Positions 2,999 to 18,386 of a stretch of DNA of 22,101 nucleotides are shown here, piece by piece. Source of the DNA: a virus. The DNA lies in IMG/VR virus record IMGVR_UViG_3300021180_000052, positions 1 through 22,101 of that record, one strand, 5' to 3'. How positions within the stretch are numbered: position 1 is the stretch's first letter; every line of letters begins with the position of its first letter. Below the pieces are notes generated by a model that was given only the letters and a program-made list of their open reading frames with translations, searched no databases and was not told the DNA's origin. Made by a program: the position numbers and the translations under genes.

Positions 2999-3052
2999 AG
3001 CGCATGGTCGAAGGCCATGGCGTCGGAGGTTCGATTCCTTCCTTGGGCACCA
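2976..3052 (+). tRNA. tRNA-Phe(GAA)-like gene with encoded CCA and unusual C33
   Basis: A full cloverleaf folds. The acceptor GCCCAGG pairs with CTTGGGC (one G-U). The D stem is GCTC/GAGC with a 9-base loop. The anticodon stem CATGG/CCATG has loop TCGAAGG. The variable loop is GCGTC. The T arm GGAGG-TTCGATT-CCTTC has one G-U. Discriminator A and CCA (3050-3052) are encoded. The loop places GAA (Phe) at 34-36, and the acceptor and D arm resemble bacterial tRNA-Phe. Base 33, almost always U in working tRNAs, is C here, and the bases after the anticodon are GG instead of the usual purine-rich AA. It may therefore be a poor or repurposed tRNA. Confidence 0.85.
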
Positions 3053-3053
3053 G

Positions 3054-3315
3054 TTAGCTATCGAACAAGTCGCCTTGCGCGTCGCGGGCGATCTTCATCC
3101 GGCCAATCACTTGCTCGATGATCGGCTCGAACGTCTCCGGATAGAGCGCGAAGCAATGGGTGCCAGCGCCGTTGGTCTTTGGCCGGTTGTCCTTGACGGG
3201 CAGTGAGCCGTAGATCTCCTGATATCGGTCGCGGACGGCGGCGCCGACGGCCCAGGTCTCTTCTTTGACGGGCTTGAGCTTTGAGGCGGCGGAAGACGTC
3301 AATGACGGTGATCAT
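3054..3315 (-). CDS. Hypothetical small protein, probably frameshifted near its start
   Basis: The main frame ends at 3054, directly behind the tRNA, and encodes a coherent protein (KPVKEETWAVGAAVRDRYQE, then LPVKDNRPKTNGAGTHCFAL). In that frame the only start is a TTG at 3302 with no ribosome binding site. In the neighbouring frame ATG 3315 has GGAG just upstream and begins MITVIDVFRRLK, which reads as a natural N-terminus. Joining the two needs a +1 shift around 3270-3290 and would give about 86 aa. The Trp, Arg/Tyr and PKT-GAG-HCFA residues look like a conserved core, but I cannot name the family. Upstream lie two TTGCA-N5-TGCAA palindromes. Confidence 0.6.
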
Positions 3316-3335
3316 AGCTCCAGCTTGACCCAATC

Positions 3336-3366
3336 TTGCAGTTCATGCAAATTGCAGTTGCTGCAA
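3336..3366. promoter_or_regulatory. Two tandem TTGCA-N5-TGCAA palindromes, probable operator
   Basis: TTGCA GTTCA TGCAA (3336-3350) and TTGCA GTTGC TGCAA (3352-3366) have identical arms and 5-base spacers, and their centres are 16 bases apart. They lie 21-51 bases upstream of the ATG of the minus-strand gene at 3315. The same arm and spacer geometry recurs at 16187-16201. This fits a dimeric repressor site. I found no clear -10/-35 pair here. Confidence 0.65.
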
Positions 3367-3456
3367 GGCGAGGGTTTGGCCAGGGATGGCAAGGCGGGGC
3401 GTGGCATGGCCCTGCACGGCATGGCTGGGGCGTCGCAAGGCGCTGTAAGGCAAGGA
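3367..3456 (+). repeat. Short GGCNN pentanucleotide array upstream of the embedded gene
   Basis: From about 3376 to 3425 the sequence divides cleanly into NNGGC units (ttggc, atggc, aaggc, ggggc, gtggc, atggc, acggc, atggc). After a one-base phase change it continues more loosely to about 3456. It stops at the AAGGAG ribosome binding site of the 3467 gene. It is the same repeat type as the long array behind that gene. Confidence 0.75.
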
Positions 3457-3466
3457 GAGTCGAAAA

Positions 3467-4060
3467 GTGGAAATATTGGTTCATATAACCGGCGTGACGC
3501 CGCTAATTTGCAATCGATTCAGCGATGAAGCGGCGATCATAGCGTCCGGCGGAGTACGCGGCAGTTCTGCGGGCGCCGAACGCAGAACACCTCTCGATAT
3601 TTGCGACAGCAAGCTCTACCGGGGGCTCGACGGCGAGCTGATAATCCCGCAACCCAACCTTCTGAGAAGCCTTGTCGATGGCGGCAAGTTTCACAAAGTC
3701 GGAAAAAAACAAATCACGACCAAAGAAGAATCAATGATGTTCGCTTGTGTCGATATCGAGGGCGCCGAAATCCCCTTGATCCACAAACAGGCGTGGAAAG
3801 TCGACACGAGGCCGGTCGTTATTCCGGCAACCAAGGGGCGAATCCTCGCGCACCGGCCGATGTTCGATGATTGGCGCTTGGAATTTACGGTCCAGCTCGA
3901 CACGAGCATTCTCGGACCTGGGATCTTCCGGTCGATTGTCGACGACGCCGGGAAGCGGGTGGGGCTCGGCGATTTTCGGCCGGCGCGGAAGGGTCCGTAT
4001 GGGCGCTATCGCGTTGATCATTGGGCGGTCGTGGAACAGGCGATCGACGTAGCAGCTTAG
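3467..4060 (+). CDS. Unrecognised 197-aa protein embedded in GGCNN arrays
   Basis: Starts at GTG 3467, with AAGGAG ending 9 bases upstream and the leader element GAGTCGAA between. The N-terminus MEILVHITGVTPLICNRF is beta-strand-like. The middle holds LYRGLDGELIIPQPNLLRSL, followed by a Lys-rich stretch. The C-terminus has a conserved-looking GLGDFRPARKGPYGRYRV. The strand-rich start with TGVTPL and the late glycine-rich Arg segment remind me of Cas7/RAMP-type RNA-binding ferredoxin folds, but that is impression only. Its codons are less extreme than the surrounding DNA, and its stop is followed at once by the array. A role in binding the array or its RNA is speculation from position. Confidence 0.8.
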   Translation: MEILVHITGVTPLICNRFSDEAAIIASGGVRGSSAGAERRTPLDICDSKLYRGLDGELIIPQPNLLRSLVDGGKFHKVGKKQITTKEESMMFACVDIEGAEIPLIHKQAWKVDTRPVVIPATKGRILAHRPMFDDWRLEFTVQLDTSILGPGIFRSIVDDAGKRVGLGDFRPARKGPYGRYRVDHWAVVEQAIDVAA

Positions 4061-4213
4061 CGATGCACGGCAGGGCATGGCGTGGCTCGGCGGGGCGCGG
4101 CAGCGCGCGGTCGGGCAGGGCTGGGCGTCGCTAGGCAGGGCTCGGCTTGGCGGAGCGCGGCTGGGCTTAGCACTGCTTGGCTCGGCTGGGCGGCGCACTG
4201 CGCGGCAAGGTGA

Positions 4214-4244
4214 GGATATTTTATTGATTGGACGCGGGACGGCT
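4214..4244 (+). repeat. AT-rich spacer block, copy A
   Basis: The core GGATATTTTATTGATT (4214-4229) is followed by GGACGCGGGACGGCT (4230-4244). The core is repeated in copy B and, with substitutions, in copy C; the 15-base tail is repeated exactly in copy C. It breaks the pentamer phase. Confidence 0.85.
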
Positions 4245-4376
4245 GGGCTAGGCCGAGCTGGGCGAGGCAAGGTCCGGCGCGGCGCGGCTGTGCAAGGCGG
4301 GGCCATGCGGAGCGGGGCTTGGCATGGCATGGCGAGGCACGGCGTGGCAATGCGCGGCGCGGCTTTGCGAGGCGAG

Positions 4377-4392
4377 GGATATTTTATTGATT
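4377..4392 (+). repeat. AT-rich spacer block, copy B
   Basis: The 16-base core GGATATTTTATTGATT is identical to copy A. Here it is followed directly by pentamers (AGGCGAGGCTCGG) without the GGACGCGGGACGGCT tail. Confidence 0.85.
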
Positions 4393-4669
4393 AGGCGAGG
4401 CTCGGCTAGGCTTGGCGAGGCGGCGCGATGCAGGGCGCGGCACGGCATGGCGGTGCTCGGCACAGCAGGGCAGGGCTCGGCGCGGCGAGGCCGTGCGGGG
4501 CCTTGCGTGGCACGGCCCGGTAGGGCTGGGCAAGGCTACGCTTTGCGAGGCGCGGCGTGGTTTGGGCTCGGCAGGCCCCGGCCATGCTAGGCGCGGCTTG
4601 GCACGGCGTGGCGTGGTCGGGCAAGGCGGGGCAAGGCGACGCGAGGCGACGCACGGCTCTGCGAGGCGA

Positions 4670-4700
4670 GGATTGTTTGTTGATTGGACGCGGGACGGCT
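4670..4700 (+). repeat. AT-rich spacer block, copy C
   Basis: The core GGATTGTTTGTTGATT (4670-4685) matches copy A at 13 of 16 positions and carries the same 15-base tail GGACGCGGGACGGCT (4686-4700). Spacing between cores is 163 and 293 bases, so the blocks are not evenly placed. Confidence 0.85.
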
Positions 4701-4980
4701 CGGCTCGGCGCGGGCTGGGCGGTGCTCGGCTTGGCTCGGCGAGGCACGGCAGCGCGTGGCGGGGCAAGACAAGGCGAGGCTTATCCGGGCGGGGCACGGT
4801 TAGGCGGGGCTTAGCGTGGCGGCGCAAGGCAAAGCGCGGCGCGGCGCGGCGAGGTCGGGCGAGGCAGGGCTCGGCTTGGCGTAGCGCGGCGGGGCGATGC
4901 TCGGCCCTGCGCGGCAGGGCTTGGCGTGGCGAGGCGACGCACGTCCCGGCACGGCGGCGCGTGGCTCGGCAAGGCGAGGT

Positions 4981-5005
4981 GGGGGCGGCTTCGGCCGCCC
5001 CCTTT
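4981..5005 (+). terminator. cUUCGg tetraloop terminator closing the pentamer array
   Basis: GGGGGCGGC (4981-4989) pairs perfectly with GCCGCCCCC (4994-5002) around TTCG, the very stable C(UUCG)G loop. TTTCATTT follows on the + strand. The T residues are on the + side, so it best terminates rightward transcription through the array. It also sits at the 3' end of the leftward recombinase gene, where it would act as a 3' stabiliser or weaker terminator. Confidence 0.8.
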
Positions 5006-5658
5006 CATTTGACGTCGACCATCCGGCTCACGACTGATCGCGTGAACGGGCGGCCGGACGAGCTGACGAAACCCTGCTTCTCCAGCGCCATGCGAACCGC
5101 GTTTAGGCTTTTGCCGGTCTTGCGCAGATCGCTAGCGATCTTGACCATTTCCGGGTTCATCTGAGCCCAGCTCAGCCGACCTTCGCACTTGCCGAATTGG
5201 GCCTTCTTGCGGTCGCGCGCGCCGCGCAGCTTGGCGACCGTCAGCGCCTTGTCGAATTGCGCGACGGCGCCCAAAATTTGCCGAATCAGCGTCGCCGTCG
5301 GCGTGTCGTCGAGGAAGGCGTTCGGGCTGTCGACGGCGACCAGCTCGACGCCGAGTTGTTGAAGCATCCGCCAACCCGTTTCTTGGATCAGCAAATCGCG
5401 AGCGAACCTGTTCGCGGTTTCGAGAAGGATCATTCGCACGCCGTTCGAGGTGACGCGCTGGAGCAATCGGCGGAATCCCTCGCGTTGGTCGAGCGGATCG
5501 GCGCCGGAGACGGCAGCATCGTAAAATTCCTCGACGATCTCGATGTCGTTGTGCGCCGCGTAGCGGCGGACGGCGGCCTCCTGGCGGGCCAAGCTGTCTT
5601 TGTCCGCGCCGACGTTGGTCGCGGACGAGGTCCGGTAGTATCCGACTGCTTTTTTCAT
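5005..5658 (-). CDS. Serine recombinase of the resolvase/invertase family
   Basis: 217 aa from ATG 5658. The N-terminal catalytic domain opens with KKAVGYYRTSS, giving the Y-x-R-x-S signature (R9, probable nucleophile S11). It continues with a DSLARQ helix (about 21-26) and the second arginine cluster NRFARD (R84, R87). A short C-terminal region (about 145-217; KTGKSLNAVRMALEKQGF, then RSVVSRM) looks like a helix-turn-helix DNA-binding domain. The size fits small resolvase/invertases, not large serine integrases. It lies in one unit with the 5750-5947 gene, 91 bases downstream of it. It could resolve multimers, invert a segment or mediate integration; no crossover site is identified. Confidence 0.93.
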   Translation of the reverse strand: MKKAVGYYRTSSATNVGADKDSLARQEAAVRRYAAHNDIEIVEEFYDAAVSGADPLDQREGFRRLLQRVTSNGVRMILLETANRFARDLLIQETGWRMLQQLGVELVAVDSPNAFLDDTPTATLIRQILGAVAQFDKALTVAKLRGARDRKKAQFGKCEGRLSWAQMNPEMVKIASDLRKTGKSLNAVRMALEKQGFVSSSGRPFTRSVVSRMVDVK

Positions 5659-5711
5659 GGTAAACTCTCTGTTGGCGACGTTCCGAGTCGCCTTTCTCCT
5701 GTTGACGACGG

Positions 5712-5743
5712 GGGCCGCCGCGAATCCGCAGACGCGACGGCCC
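5712..5743. repeat. Imperfect hairpin between the two minus-strand genes
   Basis: GGGCCGCCGCG (5712-5722) and CGCGACGGCCC (5733-5743) pair with one mismatch around a 10-base loop. TTTCGTTT follows on the + strand only. It may be a weak terminator facing rightward transcription, or an attenuator or processing site in the leftward message. Confidence 0.4.
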
Positions 5744-5749
5744 TTTCGT

Positions 5750-5947
5750 TTAGGCCTTGCTCGGGCCTCTCACGCTGATCCGAACCTTGCCGAAGGCGAG
5801 CGAGGTTTTGCGTGATTTGTTGCTGTAAGCCTTCACCGCGAGTTGCTCTGCGAGGGCGCGGACGTCGACCTCGACATCGACGTCGATCGAGACGTACCCT
5901 TTCGTCCGGCGGTCATAGACCCGGATGTTTTCAACGATTCTGTTCAT
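5750..5947 (-). CDS. Hypothetical 65-aa protein upstream of the recombinase
   Basis: ATG 5947 is preceded by AAGGAGTCGAA, an excellent ribosome binding site. The protein MNRIVENIRVYDRRTKGYVS is followed by an acidic strand (IDVDVEVDVRALAEQLAVKA) and a basic C-terminus (SNKSRKTSLAFGKVRISVRG). I do not recognise it. It is the first gene of the leftward unit with the recombinase, driven by a good promoter at 5982-6010. A small DNA-binding or accessory role would fit the size and basic tail but is unproven. Confidence 0.75.
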   Translation of the reverse strand: MNRIVENIRVYDRRTKGYVSIDVDVEVDVRALAEQLAVKAYSNKSRKTSLAFGKVRISVRGPSKA

Positions 5948-17771: not shown

Positions 17772-17995
17772 TGGACGCGATGTCGATCTTCGTCGCGAAG
17801 AAGCTGACCGAGCGCATCGAGGCCAAGCAGAAGGAAATGCTGCGCCCGCTGATCAACGGCGCGGCGGCTGACTTCCCCGACTACAAAAAGCGCGCCGGAT
17901 ATCTGGAAGCGCTCGGCCATGTCCTCGAATGGATCGAGCAAATCGACAACGAAGAAGACACAGACGGAAGAGGTCCGCTTGCCCGCGCATCATAG
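17771..17995 (+). CDS. Hypothetical 74-aa helical protein
   Basis: ATG 17771 shares a base with the previous TGA. The product (VAKKLTERIEAKQKEMLRPL, then KKRAGYLEALGHVLEWIEQI) is two charged helices with a short acidic tail. The pattern is common among small phage proteins near head genes. The 3' end overlaps the GroES-like gene. Confidence 0.72.
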   Translation: MDAMSIFVAKKLTERIEAKQKEMLRPLINGAAADFPDYKKRAGYLEALGHVLEWIEQIDNEEDTDGRGPLARAS

Positions 17996-18386
17996 AATCG
18001 TAACCCTCCATCTTGAGGATCCCCGAGACGTCATTTGGAACAGTTGCGGCGACGATCTCGAAAAGGTCGAGCCGTTTAACCAGCAAGTCCTCATCGCGAC
18101 CTACATCCGGCCGGCGACGCGCACCGCGAGCGGCCTGGAGATCGCCGAGGAGGCGGTCGACGAGGACCGCTACCAGGGCAAGGTCGGGATGGTTTTGAAG
18201 AAGGGGCCGCGTGCTTTCGTCGATGACGGCCCCGTCAAATTCTACGACCAGAACGTCGAGCCCGGTGATTGGGTGGTCTACCGGGCCTCGGACGGCCTCA
18301 AGGGCATGATCGGCTCTCGCGAGGTCCGGTTCATCGCCGACGTCTACATCCGAGGCAAGATCGATCACCCGGACGCATGGTTCTGA
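17979..18386 (+). CDS. GroES-like co-chaperonin-fold protein
   Basis: I favour TTG 17979, preceded by GAAGAGG at a normal distance; ATG 17919 in the same frame would overlap the upstream gene by 77 bases. From TTG the protein has 135 aa. It shows the Cpn10 layout: a first strand with VLIATYIRPATRTASGLEIA (functionally like the GroES start and mobile loop), YQGKVGMVLKKGP, then VEPGDWVVYRASDG, and a final VYIRGKIDHPDAWF. Phage GroES-like proteins can pair with host GroEL to fold capsid proteins. Placement just before scaffold and capsid genes fits that. The exact partner is inferred. Confidence 0.75.
   Translation: MPAHHRIVTLHLEDPRDVIWNSCGDDLEKVEPFNQQVLIATYIRPATRTASGLEIAEEAVDEDRYQGKVGMVLKKGPRAFVDDGPVKFYDQNVEPGDWVVYRASDGLKGMIGSREVRFIADVYIRGKIDHPDAWF

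What the first reader, a model, noticed from the sequence alone, without database searches (positions are those of the whole stretch)
4061..4980. A 920-bp GGCNN pentanucleotide field with fixed GGC and near-random NN
The unit phase holds without indels for 150 bases (4061-4210) and 270 bases (4711-4980), yet the two N positions take at least 13 of 16 possible pairs within one block. Ordinary slippage repeats copy the whole unit; here only GGC seems constrained. Possible explanations are selection on the GGC period (G-quadruplex, R-loop or a repeat-binding protein), or an unknown templated or mutational process that diversifies NN. It fills the whole 3' region between a gene's stop and a strong terminator. 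I cannot check whether this repeat type has been described.
Basis: seen in the sequence. Interest (0 to 1): 0.88.

Follow-up and report, generated by a model that had tools for sequence, protein, structure and literature searches.

The report
Phage RNA-guide array (VIPR system)
The odd five-letter repeat is most likely the guide-RNA array of a recently described phage weapon (VIPR): the near-constant GGC is scaffold, and the variable letter pairs spell out genes of rival, closely related phages.

Summary
The GGCNN field is real (lag-5 identity 0.589 against 0.330 ± 0.018 in shuffles). It is one of two arrays flanking a 197-aa gene on the same strand (upstream 3373-3463, downstream 4061-4980, ending at a terminator). 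The protein has a CRISPR-RAMP (Cas7-like) fold and shares PHROG 4652 with the SUSP1 protein that fits the Vipr of a 2026 preprint (PMC13142463). There GGY is scaffold and the NN pairs read DNA as xNN, one base skipped. Tested here, arrays of this family match held phage DNA far more often with a skip of one than with 0, 2 or 3, or with shuffled NN. A 16-unit guide (4873-4952) matches the serine-recombinase gene of sibling phages at 27-31 of 32 bases in 11 of 11 stretches found, its own copy at 23 of 32. A second guide (4296-4355) matches a DUF7307 phage gene (23 of 24); the upstream array matches vipr 5' ends. Four other scanned segments gave no credible target. New member of a known, very new kind; distinctive here: siblings targeting each other, blocks of 27-56 units, no recognised vap gene.

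The parts
3373..3463 (+). upstream vrRNA-type array, 18 traced units; its end overlaps what looks like the ribosome-binding site of the next gene (read by eye)
   Evidence: its first ten NN match vipr 5' ends antisense in relatives
3467..4060 (+). vipr gene, 197 aa RAMP-fold protein with a conserved G-rich loop (VGLGDFRPARKGPYG), PHROG 4652
4064..4213 (+). array block 1, 30 units; no target found
4214..4240 (+). interruption 1 (GGATATTTTATTGATTGGACGCGGGAC), candidate vrRNA tail or boundary
   Evidence: like elements follow blocks 2 and 3 and occur in L005 and L007; no significant fold
4241..4375 (+). array block 2, 27 units
4296..4355 (+). guide, 12 units (48-59), matching a DUF7307 phage gene at 23 of 24 bases in L186 and L189
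4376..4393 (+). interruption 2
4394..4669 (+). array block 3, 55 units, with a one-base phase shift near 4560; no credible target found
4670..4696 (+). interruption 3
4697..4977 (+). array block 4, 56 units
4873..4952 (+). guide, 16 units (163-178), matching the serine recombinase gene of sibling phages at 27-31 of 32 bases
4981..5002 (+). intrinsic-terminator-like stem that ends the array
   Evidence: 3 such sites found in 3000-5800, 3.0 expected; this one folds at z -2.68
5005..5658 (-). the phage's own serine recombinase (resolvase); at 5296-5343 its best site matches the block 4 guide at only 23 of 32 bases
3811..3834 (-). site in the window's vipr gene matched by an 8-unit guide of the related phage L006/L007
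   Evidence: coordinates read

Best explanation
It is a phage VIPR locus: a Vipr RAMP protein gene flanked by arrays that encode vrRNA guides. Mechanism, inferred from the preprint and these matches: the arrays are transcribed to GGCNN-repeat RNAs; Vipr subunits hold the GGC scaffold and present each NN dinucleotide; successive NN pair with a DNA target as NN-x-NN-x, the skipped base falling on codon wobble positions in the window targets examined; binding represses the target gene. The targets seen here are genes of sibling phages (serine recombinase, vipr; terminase for a sibling's array) and a DUF7307 phage gene, so it works as a weapon among closely related phages. Shown here: protein family and predicted fold, array anatomy, and guide-target matches under the one-base-skip rule with controls. 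Inferred: transcription, RNA processing, protein-RNA assembly, repression.
For: Protein: PHROG 4652 for the window protein (4.1e-18) and the SUSP1 gene (1.4e-96); tblastn to SUSP1 3e-4; the AlphaFold model (pLDDT 79.8) matches CRISPR effector chains in all 50 Foldseek rows shown (best E 3.8e-6) and in 48 of 50 VIA-align rows by title (best Z 11.5; Csm3 where the subunit is named). Array-gene link: of 120 viral contigs fetched only by an 8x GGCNN pattern, 100 have a good array; 80 of these 100 hold a Vipr-like ORF, all 80 within 1.5 kb, 79 of 80 with an array on its strand. Code: 34 distinct guide sets of the window and L003-L029 against held DNA, diagonals at score 15 or more for skips 0, 1, 2, 3: 3, 28, 7, 7; best 25 with skip 1, 18 otherwise. 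At 14 or more with skip 1: real 75; four shuffles 23, 17, 20, 21; swapped bases 19; reversed order 20. Targets: recombinase in 11 of 11 stretches, own gene 23 of 32; DUF7307; vipr 5' end in 17 of 18 hits at 13 or more, shuffles 0, 0, 3. Targeted records are siblings: terminase 88-95% identical in 8 of the 10 recombinase-bearing records other than the window's copy.
Against: No RNA evidence. Guide ends are unknown: blocks of 27-56 units exceed the 9-16 repeats of published vrRNAs. Of six segments of the long array scanned in viral contigs, four gave no credible target, and one of the two that did was chosen after a local hit. For 174 other guide sets, mostly from unrelated contigs, raw counts did not favour skip 1 (28, 115, 28, 136 for skips 0-3; shuffle 64); after a low-complexity filter the excess was small (17, 24, 12, 14; shuffle 11). 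Hits in homologous genes are not independent. The interruptions show no significant fold, whereas the paper's tail is structured. The upstream guide matches its own vipr at 16 of 20, so self-regulation is not excluded.
Confidence: 0.94

Rival explanations
1. A selected or drifting GGC-periodic DNA or RNA structure (G-quadruplex, R-loop, architectural site); NN carries no information.
For: Strong G over C skew on the coding strand (0.26-0.30 in the 500-base windows from 4001 to 5000) and regular GG runs.
Against: NN order carries information: shuffling, swapping or reversing NN removes the excess of target matches, and 16 successive NN match a sibling gene at 31 of 32 bases. RNA folds of two array stretches are not clearly better than shuffles (z -1.73 and -0.15). 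No quadruplex predictor was run; that runs of two G are weak quadruplex material is recalled.
Confidence: 0.02
2. Ordinary microsatellite slippage with later decay.
For: Some neighbouring units are alike and short tandem-repeat rows are reported.
Against: NN takes 13-16 of 16 pairs within a block. Against L005, differences at G1, G2, C3, N4, N5 are 11/76, 1/78, 5/79, 18/78, 25/76; against L007 12/65, 2/67, 4/68, 18/66, 27/67 (aligned arrays share phase, so part of this is built in). A Vipr-like ORF lies near 80 of 100 such arrays.
Confidence: 0.01
3. The VIPR locus is real but mainly controls the phage's own genes (its own vipr and recombinase) rather than attacking siblings.
For: The upstream array matches the phage's own vipr 5' end at 16 of 20 and the block 4 guide its own recombinase at 23 of 32.
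Against: Matches to sibling genes are better: 27-31 of 32 for the recombinase in 11 of 11 stretches. An L005 guide scores 17 on five sibling loci, 15 on the window and 13 on L005 itself.
Confidence: 0.1

Closest known systems
VIPR of Escherichia phage SUSP1 (type II), PMC13142463 (preprint; abstract, parts 1 and 2 of 4 of the text, and the figure legends read; supplement not read)
   Same: RAMP gene of PHROG 4652, arrays upstream and downstream of it, GGY/NN pentamers, one-base skip, skip on the wobble base, targets in competing mobile elements and in other VIPR loci
   Different: Here a separate Vipr clade (99/99 branch), GGC rather than mostly GGT (SUSP1 read), blocks of 27-56 units rather than vrRNAs of 9-16 repeats, no vap gene recognised nearby, other interruptions, targets in close sibling phages
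Arrays in Mycobacterium phages Quico, Philus and Donkeykong and Gordonia phage Ecliptus
   Same: GGCNN arrays, next to a PHROG 4652 gene in Quico, Philus and Ecliptus (Donkeykong's gene not scanned)
   Different: Other Vipr clade for Quico and Ecliptus; GGCAGGC punctuation in Quico and Ecliptus
Class 1 CRISPR-Cas (Cas7/Csm3)
   Same: Predicted fold of the protein; by inference a guide RNA held by a RAMP backbone
   Different: No CRISPR repeats in the window and no hit to PADLOC models, CRISPR ones included by recall, in 10 window proteins; the guide is non-contiguous

Membership tests
VIPR | Vipr protein: minimal RAMP with RRM core, G-loop and thumb | tested here: met
   PHROG 4652 shared with SUSP1; CRISPR RAMP complexes in all 50 Foldseek rows shown and 48 of 50 VIA-align rows by title; conserved G-rich loop. 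Thumb not examined separately.
VIPR | Intergenic stretches flanking vipr with alternating GGY/NN | tested here: met
VIPR | NN recognise DNA by the one-base-skip rule | tested here: met
   by sequence matching only; not for the wider set of arrays
VIPR | Encoded by a phage or other mobile element | tested here: met
   terminase, portal and head families in the window; virus record
VIPR | Invariable structured 3' tail on each vrRNA | tested here: inconclusive
   a recurrent element follows blocks 1-3 but shows no significant fold; vrRNA ends unknown
VIPR | vrRNA of 9-16 repeats | tested here: inconclusive
   matched stretches span 12 and 16 units, but blocks are 27-56 units long
VIPR | Adjacent vap gene (typical in the paper, not universal) | tested here: inconclusive
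   Between vipr and the terminator only array-frame ORFs are listed (not scanned); seven nearby ORFs have no PHROG hit. Candidate vap families PHROG 5926 and 15946 occur in other Vipr loci; the paper's six vap families were not at hand.
VIPR | Small RNAs that co-purify with Vipr; programmable repression | not testable with these tools
   needs experiment
CRISPR-Cas | CRISPR repeat-spacer array with cas genes | tested here: not met
   Direct-repeat search of the window within 400 bases finds this array and three coding-type repeats only; no PADLOC hit in 10 window proteins
Hammerhead-interspersed VIPR array | Hammerhead ribozymes between guides | tested here: not met
   Rfam at gathering threshold finds only the tRNA in the window

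The most novel reading that the evidence does not exclude
The NN letters are written by an unknown templated process that copies codon positions 1 and 2 of a rival phage's gene into a GGC scaffold. A 16-unit guide at 31 of 32 bases, in codon register, against a sibling gene seems hard to reach by random drift and selection alone, and related arrays share some stretches and differ in others.
Probability: 0.25. Interest if true: 0.95.

Novelty: new member of a known kind. Interest (0 to 1): 0.74.

Why it matters
It supports, on other phages and by another route, the non-contiguous guide code reported in one preprint, and shows closely related phages whose guides fit each other's recombinase, vipr and terminase genes. 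The window and its siblings give ready self/non-self guide-target pairs for asking how guides are acquired and how long arrays are cut into guides.

Tried and rejected
G-quadruplex, R-loop and slippage were considered and rejected (see rivals). Idea that the variable first base of the triplet reads the skipped base: 6 of 24 non-G cases agree, about chance. Hammerhead ribozymes: none at Rfam gathering threshold. Sigma-70 promoter scan of 3000-5800: none. Guide segments of blocks 3, 4 and 1 scanned in viral contigs: 0 stretches each; a further segment of block 3 gave one stretch with stops in register, taken as chance. In one search, 3 of 6 stretches (L187, L188, L190) share a sequence with a stop in register and are taken as chance. 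Arrays of 174 other guide sets gave no strong excess: raw 28, 115, 28, 136 for skips 0-3 and 64 for one shuffle; rows with few distinct NN, low-complexity or array-like targets were then dropped, leaving 17, 24, 12, 14 and 11. The first tree held a mis-framed row (L179); the second drops L179, DSL_LC04 and L206_v3. A first count of array differences used too strict an identity filter and was redone on the three best alignments per phage. Literature searches; in those listings only PMC13142463 describes the system; its supplement was not read, so I cannot say which of its seven types this is, or whether this clade is in it. How common Vipr-like ORFs are in viral contigs without arrays was not measured, beyond 4 of the 20 loci without a good array.

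Full report
Observation. The field is four blocks of 30, 27, 55 and 56 units separated by AT-rich interruptions; the first G is looser than the G-C core (120 of 168 units exact GGC, 156 of 168 xGC), and a second array lies upstream of the same gene. The window is a virus record with terminase, portal and head families and a tRNA-Phe.

The gene between the arrays. The 197-aa protein belongs to PHROG 4652. Twenty-seven viral loci encode relatives. GGC-period arrays of 8 or more units were traced on the gene's strand in all 27, in or next to the flanks of that gene, though no array exceeds 50% exact GGC in eight of them (L010, L011, L012, L018, L019, L020, L024, L025). An AlphaFold model from 20 relatives (pLDDT 79.8) matches CRISPR effector chains in all 50 Foldseek rows shown (68 matches at E 0.001 or less, best 3.8e-6); the VIA-align second look gives best Z 11.5 (161 residues, rmsd 4.5), 48 of 50 rows being CRISPR effectors by title and two titled only as a bacterial protein. 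A literature search led to PMC13142463, of which I read the abstract, parts 1 and 2 of 4 of the text and the figure legends: phage VIPR systems with a RAMP protein, GGY/NN vrRNAs and a one-base-skip code. The SUSP1 gene that fits its Vipr (long intergenic regions with GGY/NN repeats before and after) is in the same PHROG (1.4e-96), and the window protein finds SUSP1 by tblastn (3e-4; BLASTP 31% over 61 residues). That this SUSP1 gene is the paper's Vipr is inferred from position and family.

Array and gene go together. Of these, 100 have an array passing my filter; 80 of the 100 also hold a Vipr-like ORF, all 80 within 1.5 kb and 79 of 80 with an array on the same strand. Of the other 20 loci, 4 have such an ORF.

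Testing the code. I took the NN letters of 34 distinct guide sets from the window and L003-L029 (the window's arrays stand under the identical L003 copy) and looked for ungapped matches in the held loci, arrays masked, both strands, 2.8 million letters with spacers. Diagonals scoring 15 or more for skips 0, 1, 2, 3: 3, 28, 7, 7; best 25 with skip 1, 18 otherwise. With skip 1 and score 14 or more: real 75, four NN shuffles 23, 17, 20, 21, swapped bases 19, reversed order 20. Homologous targets are counted separately, so the counts are not independent events. For 174 other guide sets, mostly from unrelated contigs, raw counts were 28, 115, 28, 136 for skips 0-3 and 64 for one shuffle; after dropping low-complexity and array-like matches 17, 24, 12, 14 and 11. 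So the rule is supported where relatives' DNA was at hand, and hardly elsewhere.

Targets of the window's arrays. The block 4 guide (4873-4952) first hit L005-L007 locally; a pattern from it then gave 11 stretches in viral contigs, all translating in register as the same recombinase segment, and 10 of their records were searched and match the window's recombinase protein at 74-81% (the eleventh, L193, was not in that search). Over 16 units the matches are 27-31 of 32, best L200 and L202 (31, computed for L200; the rest counted). Three of the 11 (L193, L194, L196) are records already known as L006, L007 and L005. The phage's own recombinase matches 23 of 32. The block 2 guide (4296-4355) gave 6 stretches: L186 and L189 match 23 of 24 in a DUF7307 gene, L191 matches the nine searched units in a relative of it, three are taken as chance. 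The upstream array gave 18 hits at 13 or more, 17 of them at the 5' end of vipr genes, antisense (positions compared); skips 0, 2, 3 gave 0, 1, 1 and shuffles 0, 0, 3. Its own vipr matches 16 of 20, the 20 loci compared 13-19. Four other scanned segments of the long array gave nothing credible.

Sibling network. Of 10 recombinase-bearing records other than the window's copy, eight carry a terminase 88-95% identical to the window's and five the major head protein at 96-99%. L006/L007 have an 8-unit guide (score 16) that fits the vipr genes of the window, L003, L004 and L005, and L007 an upstream guide that fits an L005 gene (score 18); an L005 guide fits five sibling loci (17) better than the window (15) or L005 itself (13), at a terminase segment in the window and, by likeness, in the siblings. 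The contig names suggest that L004, a copy of this locus, and the targeted L199 come from one sample (3300021171; meaning of the name recalled).

Anatomy. The GGATATTTTATTGATT element ends block 1 and, in variant form, blocks 2 and 3, and recurs in L005 and L007; block 4 ends in the terminator-like stem. Matched guides end about four or five units before these marks. Differences between related arrays fall on N4 and N5 more than on G2 and C3, with G1 between. How blocks of 27-56 units yield guides of 12-16 units is not known.

Placement. In a tree of 19 Vipr proteins the window clade is split from SUSP1, LESphi2, Gordonia, Quico and the second Vipr of L005 and L223 by a 99/99 branch; long branches make the finer order unsure.

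Verdict. A phage VIPR locus, new member of a known kind, with long arrays and guides against sibling phages; RNA and function remain to be shown.

Noticed in passing
L005 3474-4064 and 5500-6360: One phage contig carries two different Vipr-family genes, each with its own array, the second followed by a PHROG 15946 ORF that may be its vap.
   Followed up: partly
L206 11146-12889 and L223 13953-15624: Sibling phages G010 and G012 carry other Vipr kinds with arrays punctuated by GGCAGGC.
   Followed up: partly
L150, L151, L152 around 4000-4350: Mycobacterium phages Quico, Philus and Donkeykong hold GGCNN arrays; in Philus and Donkeykong an annotated protein gene covers part of the array, which may be a wrong call.
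   Followed up: partly
L016 3306-3410, minus strand; target in L022 near 2717: A 14-unit guide matches (27 of 28) a gene that looks like a VRR-NUC nuclease (name recalled, not searched) beside another array.
   Followed up: partly
window 17919-18386: A GroES-like co-chaperonin gene lies among the phage genes.
   Followed up: no
L176, L158, L168: Vipr relatives also lie on contigs binned as bacterial, among them a complete Sulfidibacter corallicola chromosome.
   Followed up: no
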